Shown here: in pieces, positions 5,705 to 16,653 of the stretch
How positions within the stretch are numbered: the first letter of the stretch is position 1
Layout: each line of letters starts with the position of its first letter
Assembly: GCF_034009455.1 (NCBI RefSeq)
Contig: NZ_CP125380.1
Span: forward strand, 3,981,501-4,045,500
Length of the DNA: 64,000 bases
Direction: 5' to 3'
Source of the DNA: Pseudomonas sp. P5_109
GTDB lineage: Bacteria; Pseudomonadota; Gammaproteobacteria; Pseudomonadales; Pseudomonadaceae
Position numbers and translations under genes: made by a program
Notes under the pieces: model-generated
Seen by the model: the letters and a program-made list of their open reading frames with translations, nothing else
Told to the model about the DNA's origin: nothing
Database searches by the model: none

Positions 5705-6499
5705 ATGACACCAACGCTCCAGGACATGGCCTGGCATCGCTCAGCCGGCCAATTGATCGAACACCTGGACAAGGCTGATTTCTGGCGAAGCCTGAGCCGG
5801 CTGATAGGCGAATACGTACCGGTCGATACCTGGGCGGTGCTGCTGTTCAGCGACGGCCGCCCTTTTGCCTTCGCCGAAAGCCCGTATCAAGGCGAGGGAC
5901 CGGACCCGCTGTTCCACGATTACATCAAGGGCCTGTACCTGCTCGACCCCTTCTACATCGCCAATCGCGAGCAACCCGCCACCGGGCTGTACCGCTTGGC
6001 GGACGTGGCACCGGAACGCTTCAAGGAGACGGAATACTACGAGCGCTACTTCACCCACTACGTAGAGCAGGACGAAGTGCAATACAACGTGAAACTCGAC
6101 GAGGCCCGCAGCGTGTGCCTGTCATTGGGAAGTCGTCAGCTGTTCACGCCGGAACAGATTTCGCTGCTGGAAATGATCCGCCCCTGGGTCGTGGGCCTGA
6201 TGCGCCAGCGCATGTTTTTCGAGAGCGCGATGGCTGAAAGCGTCCCTCGCCAGGCACCGCGCTGGCAAGACAATCTGGAAGAGGCAATGGTGCGCCTGGG
6301 CACTCCCCTGACCGCCAGAGAGCTCGACGTGATCCGTTTGATCCTGAGTGGCTGCTCGAACAAGGAAGTGGCCAGCAAGTTGAGCATCTCGGCCGAGACC
6401 GTCAAGGTCCACCGCCGGCACGTCTACGCGAAGCTGAACATAAAGTCGCCGCAGGAGCTGTTTTCACTATTTCTCAAGGCGCAGGTTGAAACCCCGTGA
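5705..6499 (+). CDS. LuxR-family transcriptional regulator
   Basis: A 264-residue regulator. The C-terminal part, about residues 203-250, is a GerE/LuxR helix-turn-helix ('LTARELDVIRLILSGCSNKEVA', 'LSISAETVKVHRRHVYAKL'). The N-terminal 180 residues contain no recognisable receiver with a phospho-Asp and do not show the acyl-homoserine-lactone signature clearly, so the input domain is unassigned. It is divergent from the C-N hydrolase/amidohydrolase set and is its most likely regulator. A short AGGGC/GCCCT hairpin follows the stop codon. Confidence 0.85.
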   Translation: MTPTLQDMAWHRSAGQLIEHLDKADFWRSLSRLIGEYVPVDTWAVLLFSDGRPFAFAESPYQGEGPDPLFHDYIKGLYLLDPFYIANREQPATGLYRLADVAPERFKETEYYERYFTHYVEQDEVQYNVKLDEARSVCLSLGSRQLFTPEQISLLEMIRPWVVGLMRQRMFFESAMAESVPRQAPRWQDNLEEAMVRLGTPLTARELDVIRLILSGCSNKEVASKLSISAETVKVHRRHVYAKLNIKSPQELFSLFLKAQVETP

Positions 6500-6570: not shown

Positions 6571-7011
6571 TCAATGTCCGCGAATGTAGTGTTCCAGCTG
6601 CCGAATCAACTCGGCCTGCTCGACGATGGCTTCCTTGACCAGATCACCAATCGACAACAGGCCAATCAGTTGGTCGCCCTCCACCACCGGTAGATGGCGC
6701 AGATGGCTGTCGGTCATGACCGCCATGCACCGCTCGATGCTTTGCTGACTGTCGGCTGTCACGACGGGCGCGCTCATGATGGCCCGGACCGGTGTACCGA
6801 CCGAAGAGCGCCCCTGTAGAACGACCTTGCGCGCATAGTCGCGTTCGCTGATAACGCCGATGACCTGGCCCTGTTCCATGACGGGCAGAGCACCGACGTT
6901 TTTTTCCGCCATCATTTTCAACGCTTCAAGCACCATCTGGTCTGGCGCGATGCTATGCACCCGCTGGTTTTGCACGGCCTTGAGCTTGAGCAGTTGTGCG
7001 GCTGTTTTCAT
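6571..7011 (-). CDS. CBS-domain pair protein
   Basis: A 146-residue protein made almost entirely of two CBS motifs (about residues 10-70 and 78-135), including 'GVISERDYARKVVLQGRSS' and 'GLLSIGDLVKEAI'. Such stand-alone proteins usually bind adenine nucleotides and act as energy or redox sensors of partner proteins, which are not identifiable here. GGAGG upstream of the ATG fits the start. It follows nirBD on the same strand but is separated from it by 101 bases with an inverted repeat, so it may be its own unit. Confidence 0.88.
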   Translation of the reverse strand: MKTAAQLLKLKAVQNQRVHSIAPDQMVLEALKMMAEKNVGALPVMEQGQVIGVISERDYARKVVLQGRSSVGTPVRAIMSAPVVTADSQQSIERCMAVMTDSHLRHLPVVEGDQLIGLLSIGDLVKEAIVEQAELIRQLEHYIRGH

Positions 7012-7112: not shown

Positions 7113-7499
7113 TCAGGCCACCGCGACTTCCACCTGGCCTGCGTTCAGGCGCACCGGCCAGACCCGCAGGCGCTGCTGCGGATGTTCCAGGCAACTGCCG
7201 TCCTCAAGGCGGAAATGCTGTTTGTAGAGGGGCGAGGCAATCACCAGATCGCCCTTGATGCTGCCGATCAGCCCGCGACCGATGACATTCGCCCCGGATT
7301 GCGGGTCATGGTTATCGATGGCATAGAGGGTCTTGCCTTCGGCGGCCGGCAGGTAGAACAGCGCCACTTGTGCACCGTCGAGCCAGACGACGACGCCGGA
7401 ATTGCTCACCAGATCCTCCTGGCGGCACACCGTTTGCCAGGCATCTGGATTGACCAGGGCGGAACTGGAATAAGCTATCTGGGTATCGGACTGGCTCAT
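7113..7499 (-). CDS. nirD: Assimilatory nitrite reductase small subunit NirD
   Basis: A 128-residue protein with the Rieske-like fold of NirD, including 'VCRQEDLVSNSGV', 'ALFYLPAAEGKTLYAIDNHDP' and 'SPLYKQHFRLEDG', but without the Cys-His cluster ligands, as is normal for NirD. It supports NADH-dependent reduction of nitrite to ammonium by NirB. The start overlaps the nirB stop as TGATG, indicating translational coupling. Confidence 0.95.
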   Translation of the reverse strand: MSQSDTQIAYSSSALVNPDAWQTVCRQEDLVSNSGVVVWLDGAQVALFYLPAAEGKTLYAIDNHDPQSGANVIGRGLIGSIKGDLVIASPLYKQHFRLEDGSCLEHPQQRLRVWPVRLNAGQVEVAVA

Positions 7500-10060
7500 C
7501 AGGCAATCTCCTCGATGACAGGGATAAGGTGCAGTTCAGCGGCCATGATCGGCCGGCGCTGGCCGCGTTCCTGGACAAAATGGATGTCCGGGTCCGGGCG
7601 TTGATCGTTGACGAAGGTGCGGAAGCGCTTGAGCTTTTCCGGGTCTTTCAGGGCGTTGGCCCATTCGCATTCGTAGCGGTTGACCACCCGTTGCATCTGC
7701 GATTCGAGCTCAAGGCCAAGCCCCAGGCTGTCGTGGATGACCACGTCCTTGAGGTAATCCAGGCCGCCCTCCAGGCTCTCGCGCCAGACCGAGGTGCGCT
7801 GCAATTTGTCGGCGGTGCGGATGTAGAACATCAGGAACCGGTCGATGTAGCGAATCAGGGTGGCGTCATCGAGGTCGGTGGCGAACAACTCGGCGTGGCG
7901 CGGACGCATGCCGCCGTTACCGCACACATAGAGGTTCCAGCCTTTCTCGGTGGCGATCACGCCCACGTCCTTGCTCTGCGCCTCGGCGCACTCACGGGTG
8001 CAACCGGAGACCGCGAACTTGAGCTTGTGTGGCGAGCGCAGCCCCTTGTAGCGATCTTCGAGGGTCAGGGCCATTTGCACGCTGTCCTGTACGCCGTAAC
8101 GGCACCAGGTGCTGCCGACGCAGGACTTCACCGTGCGGGTCGATTTGCCATAGGCGTGCCCGGTTTCGAAACCCGCTGCAATCAGCTCGGCCCAGATGTC
8201 CGGCAACTGATGCAACTGAGCGCCGAACAGGTCGATACGCTGGCCGCCGGTGATCTTGGTGTAGAGGTCGTATTTCTTCGCCACCACGCCAATCGCGATC
8301 AATTTGTCGGCGGTGATCTCACCCCCGGGAATGCGCGGCACCACCGAATAGGTGCCGTTTTTCTGCATGTTGGCCATGAAGGTGTCGTTGGTGTCCTGCA
8401 ACGGCACCAGCGACCTGTCCATGATCGGCTGGTTCCAGCACGAGGCGAGGATCGAGCCCACCGCCGGTTTGCAGACGTCGCAACCGGTGTGGCCACGACC
8501 ATGCTTGGCCAACAGTTCGTCGAAGGTGATCACGCCCTCTACCCGTACCAGCGCATAAAGCTCCTGGCGGGTGTAGGCGAAGTGTTCGCACAGGCTCTTG
8601 TCGACACTGACGCCACGGGCAATCAGCTCATGCTCGAACACTTGCTTGAGCAACCCGGCGCAACCGCCGCAGCCGGTACAGGCCTTGGTCTGCGACTTGA
8701 GCTGGCCCAGGTCGGTACAGCCGCCGTCGATGGCCGAACAAATGGAGCCCTTGGTGACGTTATGACAGGAGCACACCGTGGCTGACTCGGGCAGCGCACC
8801 CGGGCCCAGGGTCGGCGCGCCTTCGGAGGACGGCAGAATCAGGCTGGCGGGTTCTGCTGGCAAGGCGATGCCGTTCTGCATGTATTGCAGCAAGGTGTCG
8901 TAATAGCTGTTGTCACCGACCAGCACTGCACCGAGGACGTGTTTGCCGCTTGCATCGACCACCAGGCGGCGATAACTGGCGCTGGTTTCGTCGATGAACT
9001 GATAGCTGCGCGCGCCCGGGGTGTTGCCGTGGGCGTCGCCGATGGAGCCGACATCCACCCCCAGCAGCTTGAGCTTGGTCGACATGTCGGCACCGGTGAA
9101 CGGCTCGGCGACCTCGTTGCACAGGCGGGCCGCGACGCTGCGCGCCATCTGGTAGCCCGGCGCGACCAGGCCGAACAGGCTGCCGTTCCATGAAGCGCAC
9201 TCGCCGATGGCGTAGATGTTCGGGTCGCAACTGAGGCAGGTGTCGTCGATCACCACGCCACCGCGCGGACCGATCTCCAGCGCGCATTGACGAGCCAGCG
9301 CGTCTTGCGCACGGATACCGGCGGAAAACACAATCAGGTCGGTTTCGAGGAATTCGTCATTGGCGAAATTCATGCGATAGCGGTACTGCTCGCCCGCGCC
9401 GATCGATTGCGTGGCGCGGGACAGGTGTACACCGACGCCCAATCGTTCGATCTGCGCCTTGAGCGCCTGACCACCGAGGTCATCCAGTTGTACCGGCATC
9501 AAGCGCGGCGCGAACTCCACCACGTGGGCCTCAAGGCCCAGGCTCTTCAACGCGTTCGCGGCTTCCAGGCCCAGCAAGCCACCGCCGACCACCACGCCGC
9601 GCCGGGCATTGGCCGCCGCAGCGCGAATGGCATCGAGGTCTTCCAGGGTGCGATAGACCAGACGCGATTCACCTTCGGCGCCTTCGATTGGCGGAACAAA
9701 CGGATAAGACCCGGTGGCCAGGACCAATTTGTCATACGTGACGCAACCTTGCGCGGTGATCACCTGGCGACGGACGCGGTCGATTTCCAGTACCGGCATG
9801 CCCAGATGCAGGGTAACGCCGGGCACCTGGTAAAGCGAAGCATCGGACAGCGCCAGCGACTCGGCATCACGACCGGAAAAGTACTCGGAAAGATGCACAC
9901 GGTCATAGGCGCGCATCGGTTCTTCACTGAAGACGTGCAGCCGGTAATGCTCAAGCGCTCCCCGCTCGATCAGCTGTTCGACAAAATGATGTCCGACCAT
10001 GCCATTACCGATCACGATCAGCGTTTGCATCTTGTTCAACGTGGCAACATTGGAATTCAT
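7499..10060 (-). CDS. nirB: Assimilatory NAD(P)H nitrite reductase large subunit NirB
   Basis: An 853-residue enzyme reducing nitrite to ammonium with six electrons from NAD(P)H. Domain order: FAD site ('IVIGNGMVG', about residues 14-22), NAD site ('GVVVGGGLLGLEAAN'), BFD-like 2Fe-2S domain ('CSCHNVTKGS' and 'CTGCGGC'), then the siroheme/4Fe-4S half with 'SCVGSTWCRYG' and 'SGCTRECAEAQ' supplying the cluster cysteines. Length equals the E. coli type. The ATG at 10060 is preferred; an in-frame ATG nine codons later also precedes the FAD motif. Expression is probably set by the sigma-54-like promoter and ANTAR leader directly upstream. Confidence 0.96.
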   Translation of the reverse strand: MNSNVATLNKMQTLIVIGNGMVGHHFVEQLIERGALEHYRLHVFSEEPMRAYDRVHLSEYFSGRDAESLALSDASLYQVPGVTLHLGMPVLEIDRVRRQVITAQGCVTYDKLVLATGSYPFVPPIEGAEGESRLVYRTLEDLDAIRAAAANARRGVVVGGGLLGLEAANALKSLGLEAHVVEFAPRLMPVQLDDLGGQALKAQIERLGVGVHLSRATQSIGAGEQYRYRMNFANDEFLETDLIVFSAGIRAQDALARQCALEIGPRGGVVIDDTCLSCDPNIYAIGECASWNGSLFGLVAPGYQMARSVAARLCNEVAEPFTGADMSTKLKLLGVDVGSIGDAHGNTPGARSYQFIDETSASYRRLVVDASGKHVLGAVLVGDNSYYDTLLQYMQNGIALPAEPASLILPSSEGAPTLGPGALPESATVCSCHNVTKGSICSAIDGGCTDLGQLKSQTKACTGCGGCAGLLKQVFEHELIARGVSVDKSLCEHFAYTRQELYALVRVEGVITFDELLAKHGRGHTGCDVCKPAVGSILASCWNQPIMDRSLVPLQDTNDTFMANMQKNGTYSVVPRIPGGEITADKLIAIGVVAKKYDLYTKITGGQRIDLFGAQLHQLPDIWAELIAAGFETGHAYGKSTRTVKSCVGSTWCRYGVQDSVQMALTLEDRYKGLRSPHKLKFAVSGCTRECAEAQSKDVGVIATEKGWNLYVCGNGGMRPRHAELFATDLDDATLIRYIDRFLMFYIRTADKLQRTSVWRESLEGGLDYLKDVVIHDSLGLGLELESQMQRVVNRYECEWANALKDPEKLKRFRTFVNDQRPDPDIHFVQERGQRRPIMAAELHLIPVIEEIA

Positions 10061-10100
10061 AGAAAGCACCCAGCCCGAGCCAATCACGGTTTTAAAAGCA

Positions 10101-10134
10101 AAAAAAAACGCCTGAAACCTTGCGGTTCCAGGCG
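10101..10134 (-). terminator. Leader terminator upstream of nirB
   Basis: Read on the minus strand, CGCCTGGAACC and GGTTTCAGGCG form an 11-bp stem with one mismatch and a 4-base loop, followed at once by eight T residues (10108-10101). It stands about 40 bases before the nirB start and shares its 5' arm with the second hexaloop hairpin, so the two cannot form together. Confidence 0.9.
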
Positions 10135-10180
10135 TCTTTGCCTGTTCTTTTGCGGTGTTTAAACCAGGCGGCTATGCCTG
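10129..10180 (-). promoter_or_regulatory. Tandem hexaloop hairpins, ANTAR-protein binding leader of nirBD
   Basis: On the minus strand, hairpin P1 is CAGGC-ATAGCC-GCCTG (10180-10165) and hairpin P2 is CAGGC-AAAGAC-GCCTG (10144-10129), joined by a 20-base linker. Both loops are six bases with A at position 1 and G at position 4, the known recognition feature of ANTAR antiterminators such as NasR and NasT. The 3' arm of P2 is also the 5' arm of the terminator, so binding of P2 by the protein should block termination. This predicts nitrate/nitrite-dependent NasT control; nasST is not in the window. Confidence 0.87.
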
Positions 10181-10279
10181 ATCCACCGATGCTGCCCACG
10201 ACCTGTTCGGCCAATCGATCGTCGTTGACCGAGGGGGCTGTCCACTCGAATGCGTTCAAGGTGGACCTGATGTCAGCCT

Positions 10280-10295
10280 TGCAGCCTTTGTGCCA
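10280..10295 (-). promoter_or_regulatory. Sigma-54-type promoter for nirBD
   Basis: On the minus strand the element TGGCACAAAGGCTGCA matches the -24/-12 consensus TGGCAC-N5-TTGCA with one mismatch and exact GG-to-GC spacing. It would start a leader of about 210 bases that includes the two ANTAR hairpins. NtrC-dependent, nitrogen-limited transcription is the expected consequence. Confidence 0.7.
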
Positions 10296-10525
10296 GCCAG
10301 CCACAGAGAGACTTCAACTGTCTGCAAACACTGACTCTTGGGCCTGGGGGATGGTTACGGCGCTGGAGCTACTGCGGGCGAAAGCGCGTCGCGGCGCTTC
10401 CGACTGGTGCACGTTGTTGCGCATGGCGCTTTATAAAAGTGCAAGGACAGTTCGATTCCACAGCTCGTTCGAACTCAAACCTGTTTCTGGCAATCCGTAT
10501 TGCCGCGACCCGTCGTTATACGACA

Positions 10526-11185: not shown

Positions 11186-11524
11186 GATGTCTCCTTGGCG
11201 TCCAGGACGACGAAATAAACTGGGCCAGCGGCCCTGAAAGAAACAGCCACAAGCGGGGCTAAGCCGACAACGGTTGGCAAAAGACGCAAAACCAACGAAA
11301 CCGGCGACTGCCTCCCCTTTTCAAAGCACGCCTTCCACTCTCTTAACTCCGACCAGTGGTGCAAAAAGTGGTACGAAATTCGCGACCAACCGACGGCATG
11401 ATGACTTTCTGACAGTAGGAGGAATCAATGTAGTGGCCATTTATATGCTTTGTTATAAAGCTGTGATTTAATCGCCGCCCTCCTTCCAGGCTCGACCTGC
11501 CAGACAACTGCAATGGAGTGCTTG
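11186..11524. other. Intergenic stretch before the acyltransferase block
   Basis: This 339-base stretch contains a 60-codon minus-strand frame (11182-11364) whose stop overlaps the VOC start, but the frame has no ribosome site and no recognisable similarity. The AT-rich part around 11430-11475 is a likely promoter region for the plus-strand acyltransferase. Nothing else is supported. Confidence 0.5.
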
Positions 11525-12631
11525 ATGCGCGCCGCACACATACAAAACCTGACCGGGCTACGGGGATTCGCCGCCCTGTCAGTCCTGCTGCTTCACATTC
11601 GATACGGCGACCTCGCCAATGCGTACGATGGCCTGGCATTTCTCTTCCAGACGAGAGGCCTCGGAGTCGACATATTTTTTATCCTGTCTGGTTTCATTCT
11701 GGCCTATGTCCACGGGAAAGACTTTGCAGACGGTGTTAGCCCACGGGGAGCTATGAAGTTCTGGGTAGCCAGGCTGGCACGGATCTACCCGGTGCACTTG
11801 TTCATGCTGGTCATTACAGCATTCATTCTGCCGATGCATCGTCTCTATGAGTGGTCGCCGGTCGATTCCGCCTACACGTTCTACGCGAACCTGTTTCTGG
11901 TGCATGCGTGGGGCGTAACCCCCGAACTGACATTCAACCAGCCTTCGTGGTCGATCAGTTGCGAGTGGGCGGCCTACCTGACCTTTCCGTTCATCGCCTA
12001 CTTCACGAGAAAGTGGGGAAAGATTTCGTTCTCACTGCTTTTGATCGGTCTGGCACTCTATGCGCCCTTCCTGCAACCTAAATTGCTTGCCAATGGCATC
12101 TGGACCATCAAGTGCATCGTCTACTTTGTAGCCGGATACTGCACCTACCAGGTATGCCGTGACCTGCCGGACTCCAGACTCTGGAGAGTCACCGCAATCG
12201 CGATAGCCCCACTGATCTTGCTGATGCTATGGGCAACCAGCATCCAGTACTACTTCAACATGCTTTTCCCGTTCCTCGTGATCGTGATGATTGCCAGCCT
12301 GTTCCGTGCAGGACCGATTTGGGCGTACTCCAACCCAGTATCGGTCTACCTCGGGAAAATCAGTTTCAGCCTCTACATGTGTCACATCATGGTGCTGTTT
12401 GTTGAGCGCAAGCTGTTTGGCATGATGGACCTGAAATATGAGATCCCCATCATCATCGCCTTCTCGATGTTCCTGTACCACTGCATTGAAGAGCCGGCAC
12501 GGAAGGTTATCCGGTTGGTGTCCGAAGGTGGACATCGCGAGCCTCGCCAGAAAAACTTCGCCGATAGCTTCGCATTGCCAGCTCCAGAACCGGAGTCAGA
12601 ACCACAGAAAGAGCGCCCAGCGCTCGTGTAG
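11525..12631 (+). CDS. Acyltransferase-3 family membrane protein (OafA/ExoZ type)
   Basis: A 368-residue integral membrane protein with about ten hydrophobic helices and the N-terminal signature 'LTGLRGFAALSVLLLH' with the conserved catalytic His, plus 'GVDIFFILSGFILA'. This family transfers acetyl or other acyl groups from the cytoplasm to sugars of lipopolysaccharide or exopolysaccharide. GGAG six bases before the ATG at 11525 decides the start over the ATG 12 bases earlier. The tail after the last helix is a hydrophilic, proline/glutamate-rich extension. First of three acyltransferases in 4.6 kb. Confidence 0.88.
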   Translation: MRAAHIQNLTGLRGFAALSVLLLHIRYGDLANAYDGLAFLFQTRGLGVDIFFILSGFILAYVHGKDFADGVSPRGAMKFWVARLARIYPVHLFMLVITAFILPMHRLYEWSPVDSAYTFYANLFLVHAWGVTPELTFNQPSWSISCEWAAYLTFPFIAYFTRKWGKISFSLLLIGLALYAPFLQPKLLANGIWTIKCIVYFVAGYCTYQVCRDLPDSRLWRVTAIAIAPLILLMLWATSIQYYFNMLFPFLVIVMIASLFRAGPIWAYSNPVSVYLGKISFSLYMCHIMVLFVERKLFGMMDLKYEIPIIIAFSMFLYHCIEEPARKVIRLVSEGGHREPRQKNFADSFALPAPEPESEPQKERPALV

Positions 12632-12635
12632 TAAA

Positions 12636-12666
12636 AAGGCCCGCTAAATCAGCGGGCCTTCTTTTT
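12636..12666 (+). terminator. Rho-independent terminator
   Basis: AAGGCCCGCT and AGCGGGCCTT form a perfect 10-bp stem with loop AAATC, followed by CTTTTT, five bases after the acyltransferase stop. A textbook terminator. Confidence 0.93.
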
Positions 12667-12889
12667 GCACAGTAAAAACCTGCGAACGTCCTGTCGAGCG
12701 CCGCCCCGGGCCTTGCCATTGCTCACTCGTTGCAGAGGGGCCAGGCCATGGCGACCGGTCGACCCGGGATTTACCGCCGGTCCATAACAGCACCAGACTT
12801 GGCTTCGCTTTCATTGGGCCTGGCGGTAGGATACGCGCCCAACAACAAAATACTCATCACGCACCAGGGTCATCCAATTGGCTGTAACC

Positions 12890-13960
12890 ATGACTAAAGA
12901 CCGCATAAACGAAATCGATCTACTTCGGTTCCTCGCGGCAATTGCCGTCCTATTCTTTCATTATTCCTTTCGTGGACATGCCTACGACGATCTGTCTGTC
13001 ATGTCTTACCCCTGGATAGTTCCAGCCGCAAAGTATGGGTATCTTGGTGTTCAGCTGTTTTTTATGATCAGCGGCTTTGTGATATTCATGACGGCTTCAA
13101 ATGCGAACCTGAAGTCGTTCGCAATATCCAGGATCGTCCGGCTCTACCCTGCATTCTGGGCGTGTTGCAGCATTACATTTATTGCGATCCTGTTAATGGG
13201 CAATGGACGCTTTTCGGCCACATTCACTCAGTATCTCGCCAACATGACCATGTTCAGCGAGTTCATGAAGGTCCCGTCTATCGATGGTGCCTACTGGTCA
13301 ATTTTCATCGAAATTCGCTTTTATCTTTTGATTGCCATTCTGCTGGCATTTAAACAGATGCGAAATGCAGAATATTTCATGATTGCCTGGCTCGCCTATA
13401 CAGCGAAGACTGCACTATTTGGGGCTGACAAGCTGTCTGTGTATTTGATTTCCGAATATGCGGCATTCTTCATTGCGGGCGCTTCAATGTTCATGGTCTG
13501 GAAAAATGGATTTTCCATCATCCGTACCGCGACTATCGCTCTTTCTTTTGCCTTGGCGATGTATCAAGCGTTGAAGCAAGCCAGCGTATTGACCGGTGTT
13601 TTCAAGCTGGAAGTAGACCCACTCGTGGTCATTGCGATCGTTACGAGCTGCTTCGTTGCAATGTTGCTCAGCGCTACTCGCAACACCGGATTCTTTGGCC
13701 GGACAAACTGGACAACGCTCGGGGCGCTGACTTACCCGCTCTACCTCCTGCACCAATTCATAGGCTTCATGACGTTCAACCTGCTATACGACAAGGTCAA
13801 CGTCCATTTGCTCTTCTGGGGTGTCATCGTGCTGGTTCTGGCCGCTGCTTACGCGGTGAATCAGCTCATCGAAAAACCCATGTCTACGCGTCTTCGTGCT
13901 TTACTCCAGCGCCTCCTTGGCAACAGGGTTTCGACCGAATCGGTTACGAAAGCCGACTGA
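12890..13960 (+). CDS. Acyltransferase-3 family membrane protein
   Basis: A 356-residue multi-helix protein with 'EIDLLRFLAAIAVLFFHY' at the N terminus (catalytic His in the first helix) and 'GYLGVQLFFMISGF' in the second helix, diagnostic for the family. Ribosome sites are poor: the ATG at 12890 is chosen, but a TTG at 12878 with AGGG upstream is possible. Base composition is visibly richer in A and T than the surrounding chromosome, matching the next gene and suggesting transfer. A strong bidirectional terminator follows. Likely modifies a cell-surface glycan. Confidence 0.87.
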   Translation: MTKDRINEIDLLRFLAAIAVLFFHYSFRGHAYDDLSVMSYPWIVPAAKYGYLGVQLFFMISGFVIFMTASNANLKSFAISRIVRLYPAFWACCSITFIAILLMGNGRFSATFTQYLANMTMFSEFMKVPSIDGAYWSIFIEIRFYLLIAILLAFKQMRNAEYFMIAWLAYTAKTALFGADKLSVYLISEYAAFFIAGASMFMVWKNGFSIIRTATIALSFALAMYQALKQASVLTGVFKLEVDPLVVIAIVTSCFVAMLLSATRNTGFFGRTNWTTLGALTYPLYLLHQFIGFMTFNLLYDKVNVHLLFWGVIVLVLAAAYAVNQLIEKPMSTRLRALLQRLLGNRVSTESVTKAD

Positions 13961-13995
13961 TTGCCCGCACAATGAGTTGTGGAACCAGGAATGCA

Positions 13996-14021
13996 AAAGC
14001 CCGACACGATGGTCGGGCTTT
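13996..14021. terminator. Bidirectional terminator between convergent genes
   Basis: AAAGCCCGAC and GTCGGGCTTT pair perfectly over 10 bp around loop ACGATG; T-runs occur on both strands. It separates two convergent acyltransferase genes. Confidence 0.88.
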
Positions 14022-14040
14022 AATTTGGTATCACGGAGCC

Positions 14041-14067
14041 CCCTTTGAGGCTAATGACCTCAAAGGG
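14041..14067. repeat. Perfect 10-bp inverted repeat near an acyltransferase 3' end
   Basis: CCCTTTGAGG and CCTCAAAGGG flank a 7-base spacer just nine bases beyond the stop of the SGNH acyltransferase. It lacks a T-run but can form a stable stem, probably a second termination or RNA-stabilising structure. Confidence 0.6.
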
Positions 14068-14075
14068 TTACCGAG

Positions 14076-16124
14076 CTATTTCACTGGATACTTACCCAAC
14101 AAATCATCAATAACTAGATCAGCGCCAAATATAGTCAAGTGGTCGGAATTATAGTAGAGCGGCTTACCACCAGAAGACCCATAACAATATTTATCATCAC
14201 AGAAAACATTTTTCGGGCTATAGACCTTCACCGAAGGAAACTCTGAAACCAGTTTGGAAAACATATCAGAGTAAACCTTATATCTCGCTTCGTAATCCAC
14301 GCGACTCATACCGCAGACTTCTCTGACCTTATTACCTCCAATCACCAAAGGTCGATATTCAAAGCAGCTTCTTACATTGAACTCTAGATCAGGGTTATCA
14401 CTTAAAAATATGATTTCCTTTCCAGAGCGCACAAGCTCGGCCAAGACTTTCCGCCCAACCTCGACAAATGAATCAGCCTCTTTATCAGTCAATGCACGAG
14501 GAAGTCGATAATTCTCATTATAAATACCGAACCCACCAGAAGCGAGATAACTCCAGTACCCGGCGAGATAGACAGTCTTAATGCTCGAAGTTTCCGCCGC
14601 AAATTTTAATGCTACGATGAGGTTATTCTCACAGCCACTGGCAGACATATGCGTGACCGATGAAAAAGGAATGCAACTCTGCGCCCCCAAATTCATAACT
14701 GACTTATCAGGCAGCTTACGCGCCAGGCTCTTGTAATATTGATTACTATGAGAATCACCCATAATCAATATTTCCGGGGCATAATCCTTGGATACCAGGC
14801 AAAAAAAGTAACCTTTGAGTTCAGGATACAGATTATCGCAAGCCTCGTTGCGATAAGGCATATGTGGATACGCTGCGGCCAATTCGATAGAACCATAGTG
14901 CTTGTCCAGGCTCGCTCTCGAGCCAAGACCATCAGCCTTGTACACTCCATACCCAGCAAGCCCGCAAACGAACATCAGCACAGCCAATACACAAACCTTC
15001 ATTTTGCTTTGAACGCCCAGACGAATAGGACGCTCAATGAATCTGTAGGTGATCCAGGCTAATGCAATAGACAGCAAAACCGCTGCTATCCGAGCGCGCC
15101 GGCTTGGCACCCCGCTTTCCATGATACGAAGAAAGGACAATATCGGCCAATGCCACAGGTAAAGGGGAAAACTGATCAAACCAAACCAAACGGCGATTTT
15201 GTTTGATAACACCCAGCGATTCAGAAAAGCACCGGAACCTGAAGCTATAATTAATACAGCTCCCAAAACCGGAAGTAACGCCCACTTCCCTGGAAAGTCT
15301 ACTTTCTTACTGACACACCAAAAGCCAATAAGAATTAGCAAAAAACCAATAACCGATAAAACGTTAGCAAGCGTTTTTCCGTCACTCCCGGACCGTTCCC
15401 GACCAATGACAGAGCACAGCATGCCGTCGAGCCTTAGCCCAACCCGAGAAAAAAAATCTTTTTTATACAACGCAAGCCAGGCCAGCATGCTTCCACACAA
15501 CAATTCCCAAAACCGGGTCTGCGGTGAATAGAAGGTAGCCACAGAATCTTTGCTCACCCCATAAACGTTAAGGCAAAAAGATATAGCCGCAACAAGCAAA
15601 GTCAAAGCAAAAAGATTGAATTTGCGCCGCCACGAAAACCAAAGCACGAACGGCCAAACAATATAGAACTGTTCTTCAATCCCCAGACTCCACAAATGCA
15701 ACAGCGGCTTTACATCTGCGGCGATATCAAAATACCCAGCTTCACTCCACAAGGCAAAGTTAGAAACAAACCCCGCACCAGCGGCAATATGCTTACCCAG
15801 TTGTTTATACTCTTCAGCCAGCAGGGCAAACCAGCCAAACGTAAAACTGGCGATCAGCACACAGAGTAATGCTGGAAAAATGCGTTTGATGCGGCGGGCG
15901 TAAAACTCCCTAAAGCTGAACGCATCCCTGTCCAGGCTTTTAAAGATAATCGTAGAGATCAAAAAGCCGGAGATGACGAAAAAAACATCAACTCCAATGA
16001 ATCCTCCACGAATCAAGCCTGGAAACGCATGAAATGCTACGACAGCCAATACAGCAATAGCTCTGAGGCCATCGATGTCCGGTCGGTACTTTGGGTGCGA
16101 CAGATGTGGATGCGAAGCTGGCAT
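14076..16124 (-). CDS. Acyltransferase-3 with C-terminal SGNH domain (OafB-like O-antigen acylase)
   Basis: A 682-residue two-domain protein. Residues about 15-370 are the acyltransferase-3 membrane domain ('DIDGLRAIAVLAVVAFH', 'GVDVFFVISGFLIS'). Residues about 430-680 form an SGNH hydrolase-like domain with 'ILIMGDSHS' carrying the Ser and 'SDHLTIFGA' carrying the Asp-x-x-His pair, so the active site is complete. Proteins of this layout, such as Salmonella OafB, acetylate O-antigen sugars. The region is AT-rich for the genome. Start at 16124 precedes the conserved domain; its ribosome site is weak and an upstream TTG at 16160 is possible. Confidence 0.9.
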   Translation of the reverse strand: MPASHPHLSHPKYRPDIDGLRAIAVLAVVAFHAFPGLIRGGFIGVDVFFVISGFLISTIIFKSLDRDAFSFREFYARRIKRIFPALLCVLIASFTFGWFALLAEEYKQLGKHIAAGAGFVSNFALWSEAGYFDIAADVKPLLHLWSLGIEEQFYIVWPFVLWFSWRRKFNLFALTLLVAAISFCLNVYGVSKDSVATFYSPQTRFWELLCGSMLAWLALYKKDFFSRVGLRLDGMLCSVIGRERSGSDGKTLANVLSVIGFLLILIGFWCVSKKVDFPGKWALLPVLGAVLIIASGSGAFLNRWVLSNKIAVWFGLISFPLYLWHWPILSFLRIMESGVPSRRARIAAVLLSIALAWITYRFIERPIRLGVQSKMKVCVLAVLMFVCGLAGYGVYKADGLGSRASLDKHYGSIELAAAYPHMPYRNEACDNLYPELKGYFFCLVSKDYAPEILIMGDSHSNQYYKSLARKLPDKSVMNLGAQSCIPFSSVTHMSASGCENNLIVALKFAAETSSIKTVYLAGYWSYLASGGFGIYNENYRLPRALTDKEADSFVEVGRKVLAELVRSGKEIIFLSDNPDLEFNVRSCFEYRPLVIGGNKVREVCGMSRVDYEARYKVYSDMFSKLVSEFPSVKVYSPKNVFCDDKYCYGSSGGKPLYYNSDHLTIFGADLVIDDLLGKYPVK

Positions 16125-16653
16125 TGAGGATAGAACTCTCTGGCGATGTGCAAGACGCAATCTTGTTCAGCACATAGGAATGAGTGGGCGCGGAGAACAA
16201 ACCAAAAAAACGTCGCATTCTAGCTCAGTCCCGCGCGCCCTAAACAACTATTGTCTGCCGGCCCGAGAGCCATACCCGAATTTGGCGCAGCAATGCTGAT
16301 TGAAGATAAATGCACAGATCCGTGGTTCCAGATGCTGACCTTCGATCAACTGCGCCATGCCCGGGAATACACCAAGGCAAGCGAGAATTCCGTCAAGCTC
16401 ACGTGTGCCGTGCAGCCGCGCAACGCCGGGTTCTGCAGCTATCAGAACTGACAACGAACCTGGCCCTCACACAGTGGTCACAACAGTTGATGGCATCGCA
16501 AATGATCAGTGGCCTCGGCCAGCTTCATTCACAAGCGATGCTTGCATTTCACACATTTCAGGGTGCGCCGGATAACCTCAGTGGGTTCGGTTCCTGCCTG
16601 GCGCAGGGGCTTACCGCTGCTCTCATCCCATGCTCCCTCAGCGGAGTACGCAA
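16125..16653. other. Intergenic stretch of about 530 bases
   Basis: It holds the promoter of the SGNH acyltransferase on the minus side and of the Ysc84-like gene on the plus side. Several short frames exist (for example 16251-16451 plus) but none has a ribosome site or a recognisable motif. I see no repeats or RNA genes here. Confidence 0.6.

What the first reader, a model, noticed from the sequence alone, without database searches (positions are those of the whole stretch)
10101..10295. nirBD leader has sigma-54-like promoter, two ANTAR hexaloop hairpins and an overlapping terminator
On the minus strand two hairpins, CAGGC-ATAGCC-GCCTG and CAGGC-AAAGAC-GCCTG, have 6-base loops with A1 and G4. 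The second shares its 3' arm with a terminator ending in eight T. This is the layout known for NasR/NasT antitermination. An upstream TGGCAC-N5-CTGCA element adds nitrogen-status control. The result is a two-input switch: nitrogen limitation for initiation, nitrate/nitrite for elongation. The stems are identical 5-bp CAGGC/GCCTG in both hairpins, useful for modelling recognition.
Basis: partly seen in the sequence, partly recalled or inferred. Interest (0 to 1): 0.75.

Follow-up and report, generated by a model that had tools for sequence, protein, structure and literature searches.

The report
Nitrite-reductase leader RNA with three hairpins

Summary
In detail: on the minus strand upstream of nirBD there is a sigma-54-type promoter, two hexaloop hairpins with A1/G4, and a terminator overlapping the second (nine T, not eight). 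The function is already known in other Pseudomonas: the NalA leader of nirBD (sigma-54/NtrC initiation, NasT antitermination). The genome has one ANTAR gene (read as nasT) and an NtrC gene.

A third A1/G4 hexaloop hairpin, H1 (10232-10215, loop AACGAC), lies upstream. In 56 chosen long-form leaders H1 has A1 in 55 and G4 in 56; H2 A1 in 36 and G4 in 55; H3 both in 56. RNAalifold finds these three hairpins only. Counted without selection, a C-closed R1/G4 middle hexaloop occurs in 71 of 91 long-form leaders (12% in shuffles). The genome's second nirB operon also has three hexaloops (all three in 61 of 81 relatives); its narK leader has two.

Known system; three-hexaloop target, probably a new variant. 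Binding is inferred, not shown.

The parts
10280..10295 (-). sigma-54-type promoter TGGCAC-N5-CTGCA (-24/-12); inferred +1 about 10269
   Evidence: pattern TGGCA[CT]-N5-[CTA]TGC[ATC] within 330 nt upstream of H3 in 88 of 90 genus-sample nirB leaders, 1 of 90 on the reverse strand
10215..10232 (-).
   Evidence: A1 55/56, G4 56/56, C-G closing pair 56/56 in the chosen alignment; A1/G4 in 82 of 90 genus-sample leaders
10165..10180 (-).
   Evidence: G4 55/56, A1 36/56, G1 20/56, C-G closing 56/56; C-[RNNGNN]-G in 71 of 91 and C-[ANNGNN]-G in 47 of 91 long-form leaders, shuffles 12% and 7%
10153..10188 (-). outer stem of H2, CGGTG (10188-10184) with CACCG (10157-10153); would shorten the unpaired stretch between H2 and H3 from 20 to 8 nt
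   Evidence: MFE fold; 3 of 5 pairs with changes on both sides, but only 73% of cells paired
10129..10144 (-).
   Evidence: CAGGC/GCCTG stem in 80 of 81 (window and L002-L081; missing in L077) when any A1/G4 hexaloop before a T run is accepted; -7.5 kcal/mol alone
10100..10134 (-). intrinsic terminator: 11-bp stem 10134-10109, GCAA loop, nine T; its 5' arm holds the 3' arm of H3
   Evidence: -22.3 kcal/mol with two flanking pairs
10240..10266 (-). 5' hairpin of the leader (GTCCAC...GTGGAC), not a hexaloop; missing in some relatives
7499..10060 (-). nirB, nitrite reductase large subunit (ATG at 10060; an in-frame GTG lies at 10087)
   Evidence: NCBIfam NF011565 1249 bits, TIGR02374 1042 bits (given 7499-10063, one codon longer); start re-read
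7113..7499 (-). nirD, nitrite reductase small subunit
   Evidence: TIGR02378 105 bits

Best explanation
This is the NalA-type leader of a Pseudomonas nirBD operon, in a three-hexaloop form. A sigma-54 promoter active under nitrogen limitation starts the transcript (published for other Pseudomonas, inferred here). By default transcription ends at the terminator 10134-10100. When nitrate or nitrite frees NasT from NasS, NasT binds the A1/G4 hexaloops; holding H3 folded keeps its 3' arm out of the terminator, so transcription reads into nirBD. H1, and in this lineage also H2, act as upstream recruitment hairpins and H3 as the antitermination hairpin; H2 with its outer stem brings H1 nearer to H3 or serves as a stepping stone. 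Shown here: the sequence elements, their conservation and covariation, one ANTAR gene and one NtrC gene in the genome, and three leaders of this kind. Inferred: binding, its order, and what H2 does.
For: One ANTAR gene in the genome, a substrate-binding-protein-like gene beside it; NtrC 792.7 bits. Of 16 genus genomes without an ANTAR match, 0 have a window-type NirB; G133 (88% complete) has a NirB at 35% identity. Sigma-54 motif in 88 of 90 leaders, reverse-strand control 1 of 90. H3 with a T run in 90 of 90 (the retrieval pattern contains most of H3, so partly by construction); H1 with A1/G4 in 82 of 90 (my count; the H1 pattern requires G4). On the stated structure 77 cells change on both sides, shuffled mean 27.8, 0 of 500 as high; slid structures 17-29. 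RNAalifold, given no structure, returns the inner stems of H1, H2 and H3 and nothing else. The H1 loop AACGAC resembles the first loops of the other two such leaders of the genome: AACGGC (narK), AACGAC (nas-type nirB). Published: PMC12830290 (passages), PMC3973561 (passages).
Against: No binding or transcription data for this strain. The 56 aligned leaders were chosen by me from 91; in all 91, 20 lack a C-[RNNGNN]-G middle hairpin, and 23 of 90 genus leaders are short form. Two leaders (L223, L229) have neither an A1/G4 H1 nor H2. RNAalifold's covariation term is small (-0.66 of -14.27). The H1-H3 interval is only weakly more stable than shuffles (median z -0.81; 26 of 64 below -1). A 20-nt linker extension abolished antitermination by EutV (PMC8934654 passage), so a median 65-nt H1-H3 gap needs an explanation. 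The MFE fold pairs the H1 region partly otherwise. NtrC palindromes in the window are at chance level (69 found, 67.6 expected; nearest 10396-10410 with two mismatches). In the nas-type leaders RNAalifold returned the middle and last hairpins but not H1.
Confidence: 0.83

Rival explanations
1. Only H2 and H3 form the functional dual-hexaloop target; H1 is incidental or serves something else.
For: In the window H2 has A1/G4 and lies closer to H3 (20 nt, 8 nt if the outer stem forms) than H1. In L214-L217 H1 has G1 while H2 carries AACG, and in L211 H1 is not found and H2 is AACGTC.
Against: H1 keeps A1 more often than H2 (55 against 36 of 56) and is the only upstream A1/G4 hexaloop close to H3 in the 23 short-form leaders; its loop resembles the first loop of the other two leaders of the genome.
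Confidence: 0.12
2. H1 and H3 are the target and H2 is only a structural spacer that folds away the intervening RNA; NasT does not touch H2.
For: The interval folds in all 64 measured long-form leaders (MFE -10.9 to -26.8 kcal/mol), leaving a median of 14 unpaired exterior nt against 12 in 22 short-form leaders; A1 of H2 is G in 20 of 56; 20 of 91 lack the H2 hexaloop.
Against: G4 of H2 is kept in 55 of 56 and its C-G closing pair in 56 of 56 while loop positions 2, 5 and 6 vary; C-[RNNGNN]-G occurs in 71 of 91 against 12% in shuffles; the interval's stability is weak against shuffles.
Confidence: 0.3
3. H1 is a DNA site (inverted repeat GRTC-N6-GATC) for a DNA-binding regulator, not an RNA hairpin.
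For: H1 is an inverted repeat at about +38 to +55 from the inferred start (coordinates).
Against: Column pair 14/25 is G-U in 40, A-U in 14, G-C in 2 of 56, always pairable, which favours RNA; loop positions 1, 2 and 4 are conserved; similar loops on other stems stand before narK and the nas-type nirB.
Confidence: 0.05

Closest known systems
NalA leader RNA of nirBD (P. aeruginosa, P. putida, P. protegens)
   Same: Position before nirB, sigma-54 promoter, terminator, NasT control; described in PMC12830290 (passages) and PMC3973561 (passages).
   Different: Here nirBD is separate from the nas cluster, which has its own nirB, and the leader has three A1/G4 hexaloops. Whether Romeo 2012 or Nie 2024 drew the hairpins this way I do not know; neither is held.
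EutV dual-hexaloop leaders of Enterococcus eut genes (PMC3369931, PMC8934654; passages)
   Same: Hexaloops with A1/G4, the last overlapping the terminator.
   Different: Two hexaloops, natural linkers 5-12 nt, failure with longer linkers; here three, median 65 nt between H1 and H3 in long-form leaders. EutX has an additional single hexaloop with G4, the nearest precedent I saw for more than two.
Paracoccus nasA leader (NasT target; PMC5424462, PMC3795266, passages)
   Same: NasT-controlled leader; mutation of its hairpin HI severely lowers expression; NasT binds the leader.
   Different: Two hairpins, HI and HII, are described.
Klebsiella nasF leader (NasR target)
   Same: A1/G4 hexaloops, nitrate control of a terminator (PMC3369931 passages).
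   Different: One-component sensor NasR; a pair of hexaloops.

Membership tests
ANTAR-target leader (definition in PMC3369931) | two hairpins of at least 3 bp with hexaloops, A1 and G4, joined by a variable linker | tested here: met
   three such hairpins; definition seen in passages
ANTAR-target leader (definition in PMC3369931) | last hexaloop hairpin mutually exclusive with an intrinsic terminator | tested here: met
   H3 3' arm 10133-10129 lies in the terminator 5' arm 10134-10124
ANTAR-target leader (definition in PMC3369931) | ANTAR gene in the genome | tested here: met
   PF03861 63 bits, one match
ANTAR-target leader (definition in PMC3369931) | linker of 5-12 nt as in natural eut leaders (typical, not part of the stated definition) | tested here: not met
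   20 nt H2-H3 (8 nt if the outer stem forms) in the window; median 65 nt H1-H3 in 64 long-form leaders
ANTAR-target leader (definition in PMC3369931) | binding by the ANTAR protein | not testable with these tools
   needs a gel shift
NalA leader of nirBD | sigma-54 promoter and terminator upstream of nirB | tested here: met
NalA leader of nirBD | NtrC-dependent transcription | tested here: inconclusive
   NtrC gene present; no NtrC palindrome above chance
NalA leader of nirBD | NasT-dependent read-through | not testable with these tools
   needs a reporter or in vitro transcription

The most novel reading that the evidence does not exclude
Pseudomonas NasT works on three-hexaloop leaders in which two upstream hexaloops recruit NasT and hand it to the terminator-linked third, so the dual-hexaloop rule and its tight spacing are not general; either upstream hexaloop can lose A1 in a lineage while the other keeps it (6 of the 8 genus-sample leaders without an A1/G4 H1 have an A1/G4 H2).
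Probability: 0.38. Interest if true: 0.55.

Novelty: new variant of a known kind. Interest (0 to 1): 0.42.

Why it matters
The EutV structure paper proposes that an ANTAR dimer moves from a recruitment hexaloop to an antitermination hexaloop and needs close spacing (PMC8934654 passages). A family of natural leaders with two or three hexaloops and H1-H3 loop distances from 38 to 99 nt, presumably all read by NasT, gives ready-made tests of that model and of the spacing rule.

Tried and rejected
Rfam: no family at gathering threshold in the window; with E up to 1 in 9900-10500 three matches, best Thr_leader at E 0.07 and 22.6 bits against a cut-off of 55, taken as chance. NtrC palindrome: 69 matches in the window, 67.6 expected, not used. 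Other NasT targets in the genome by the pattern CAAAGRCG-N15-45-T6: seven distinct places; nirBD, nas-type nirB and narK fit. Of the four others I looked at the surroundings only of 1222790 (reads as an ordinary terminator after a gene end); three were judged from the matched letters alone, and targets departing from the pattern would be missed. I first took H2 for a lineage-specific insertion; leaders from other genera also have the long form, so I give no polarity. The stability z-scores of the H1-H3 interval do not by themselves support a folded spacer. A1/G4 in H2 in 6 of 8 leaders without an A1/G4 H1 against 25 of 59 with one is suggestive only and confounded by shared ancestry. That I found no three-hexaloop ANTAR description rests on search listings of an open-licence library and on passages of eight papers (PMC3369931, PMC12830290, PMC7801951, PMC3795266, PMC8934654, PMC3973561, PMC5424462, PMC6759348); I read no paper whole, and the primary NalA papers are not held.

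Rows dropped: 35 of 91 non-redundant long-form leaders were left out of alignment A1 by my choice before aligning; one search counts all 91. In narK (39 of 124 fetched) the strict search found both hairpins in 33 of 39; reading the six misses, L136 has AACGAC as second loop, L302, L305 and L308 have both hairpins but a short T run, L157 is cut by a contig end and L306 shows none.

Full report
What is there. The minus strand upstream of nirBD carries, in order, a sigma-54-type promoter (10295-10280), a 5' hairpin (10266-10240), three small hairpins with six-base loops, an intrinsic terminator ending in nine T (10134-10100), and the nirB ATG at 10060. The first, H1 (10232-10215, loop AACGAC), was not listed. 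All three have A at loop position 1 and G at position 4. In 5000 dinucleotide shuffles of the leader three such hairpins of at least 4 bp arose twice, two or more 43 times. The whole leader folds at z = -5.86, although the MFE structure pairs the H1 region partly with sequence further downstream.

Genes. NirB (1249 bits) and NirD (105 bits) are clear by NCBIfam. The genome has one ANTAR match, 63 bits, in a 191-aa protein directly following a substrate-binding-protein-like gene (only weak NCBIfam matches); I read them as nasT and nasS from arrangement and known biology. They lie about 1.95 Mb from the window in a cluster with narK (TIGR00886, 313 bits, just over its cut-off), a PP2C/kinase gene, a second NirB (TIGR02374, 928 bits), a nitrate-reductase-like molybdoprotein (under its cut-offs) and cobA. 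NtrC is present (792.7 bits). Of 149 genomes of the genus, 133 have an ANTAR match (some have two or more); of the 16 without, none has a window-type NirB and one (G133, 88% complete) has a NirB of the other type.

Leaders compared. In the same 149 genomes, 89 have a window-type NirB (90 copies), 81 a nas-type NirB and 124 narK. I took the upstream regions of all 90 and all 81, and of 39 of the 124 narK genes. For nirB: H3 with a following T run in 90 of 90, found with a pattern that includes most of H3; in a looser test on the window and the 80 loci, the CAGGC/GCCTG stem is found in 80 of 81. H1 has A1/G4 in 82 of 90. The eight others are L211 (H1 not found), L212 and L214-L217 (G1), and L223 and L229 (H1 not found); the first six have an A1/G4 H2, L223 and L229 have none. 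In 23 of 90 leaders H1 lies 38-45 nt (loop to loop) from H3 and the listing shows no second A1/G4 hairpin between them (22 of the 23; L233 was not listed there and I read it by eye); in 64 leaders the distance is 54-99 nt. The sigma-54 pattern occurs upstream in 88 of 90 (not in L225 and L234), against 1 of 90 on the reverse strand.

Structure test. One search gave 91 non-redundant long-form leaders (genus sample, the loci and the family loci). Before aligning I chose 56 of them whose spacing and middle region looked alike, leaving out 35, so the following counts favour regularity. On the stated structure 86% of cells pair (shuffled 81.3%), 13 pairs have changes on both sides (shuffled 8.0), and 77 cells do (shuffled mean 27.8, none of 500 as high; slid structures 17-29). 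RNAalifold, given no structure, returns the inner stems of H1, H2 and H3 and nothing else, with a small covariation term. Loop columns: H1 A1 55, A2 56, G4 56 of 56; H2 A1 36, G1 20, G4 55; H3 A1 56, G4 56; the closing C-G pair is invariant in all three. Counted without alignment in all 91, the middle interval holds C-[ANNGNN]-G in 47 and C-[RNNGNN]-G in 71, against 7% and 12% of shuffles; 20 of 91 have neither, 19 of them among the 35 left out.

Other leaders of the genome. The narK leader has two hexaloops (AACGGC, AAAGAC, 7-nt linker) and the nas-type nirB leader three (AACGAC, AGAGAA, AAAGGC), each before a terminator. Among the 81 nas-type leaders H3 was found in 81 (again with a pattern holding the loop), a middle A1/G4 hexaloop of at least 4 bp in 73, an A1/G4 H1 of at least 3 bp in 67, and all three in 61. 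In the alignment (70 unique rows) the middle loop has A1 in 66 and G4 in 66, its closing pair being G-C; RNAalifold returned the middle and last hairpins there but not H1, so H1 is the weaker element in that family. In narK the pair was found by strict search in 33 of 39. Three hexaloops thus recur, but not everywhere. A genome scan for the H3-plus-T-run pattern gave no further convincing target.

Mechanism. A review states that the nirBD leader, NalA, starts from a sigma-54 promoter under NtrC and is antiterminated by NasT, which NasS holds until nitrate or nitrite binds (PMC12830290, passages); dissociation of NasS-NasT and NasT binding to a leader are shown for Paracoccus (PMC3795266, passages). 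For EutV, a dimer is proposed to meet each hexaloop in turn, and a 20-nt longer linker abolishes antitermination (PMC8934654, passages). Applied here, H3 is the antitermination hairpin and H1 the general recruitment hairpin; H2 is a second recruitment site or a folded spacer. I favour recruitment for the window's lineage because G4 of H2 is held while its neighbours vary, but A1 is not held and 20 of 91 leaders do without it, so the spacer role is a serious rival. None of the binding steps is shown.

Verdict. I found no earlier description in the listings, but the primary NalA papers are not held, so prior description cannot be excluded.

Noticed in passing
L082 (G000:C1:2026000-2044000): The genome has a second, different NirB (817 aa) in a nas cluster with nasS-nasT, narK, a nitrate-reductase-like gene and cobA, with its own three-hexaloop leader.
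   Followed up: yes
L082 7281-8948 minus: A PP2C phosphatase/protein kinase fusion-like gene sits between narK and the nas-type nirB; its role there is unclear.
   Followed up: no
narK upstream regions (L131-L160, L302-L310): Only 3 of 39 narK upstream regions match the strict sigma-54 pattern that fits 88 of 90 nirB and 79 of 81 nas-type leaders; narK may start from a weaker or different promoter.
   Followed up: no
L223, L229: Two nirB leaders keep H3 and the terminator but have neither an A1/G4 H1 nor an A1/G4 H2; useful natural controls.
   Followed up: partly
window 6571-7011 minus and 5705-6499 plus: Downstream of nirD lie a small ORF that reads like a CBS-domain protein and, on the other strand, a LuxR-type regulator ORF (by reading, no family search).
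   Followed up: no
window 11513-16160: Three long ORFs that read like acyltransferase-3 membrane proteins, by eye only.
   Followed up: no
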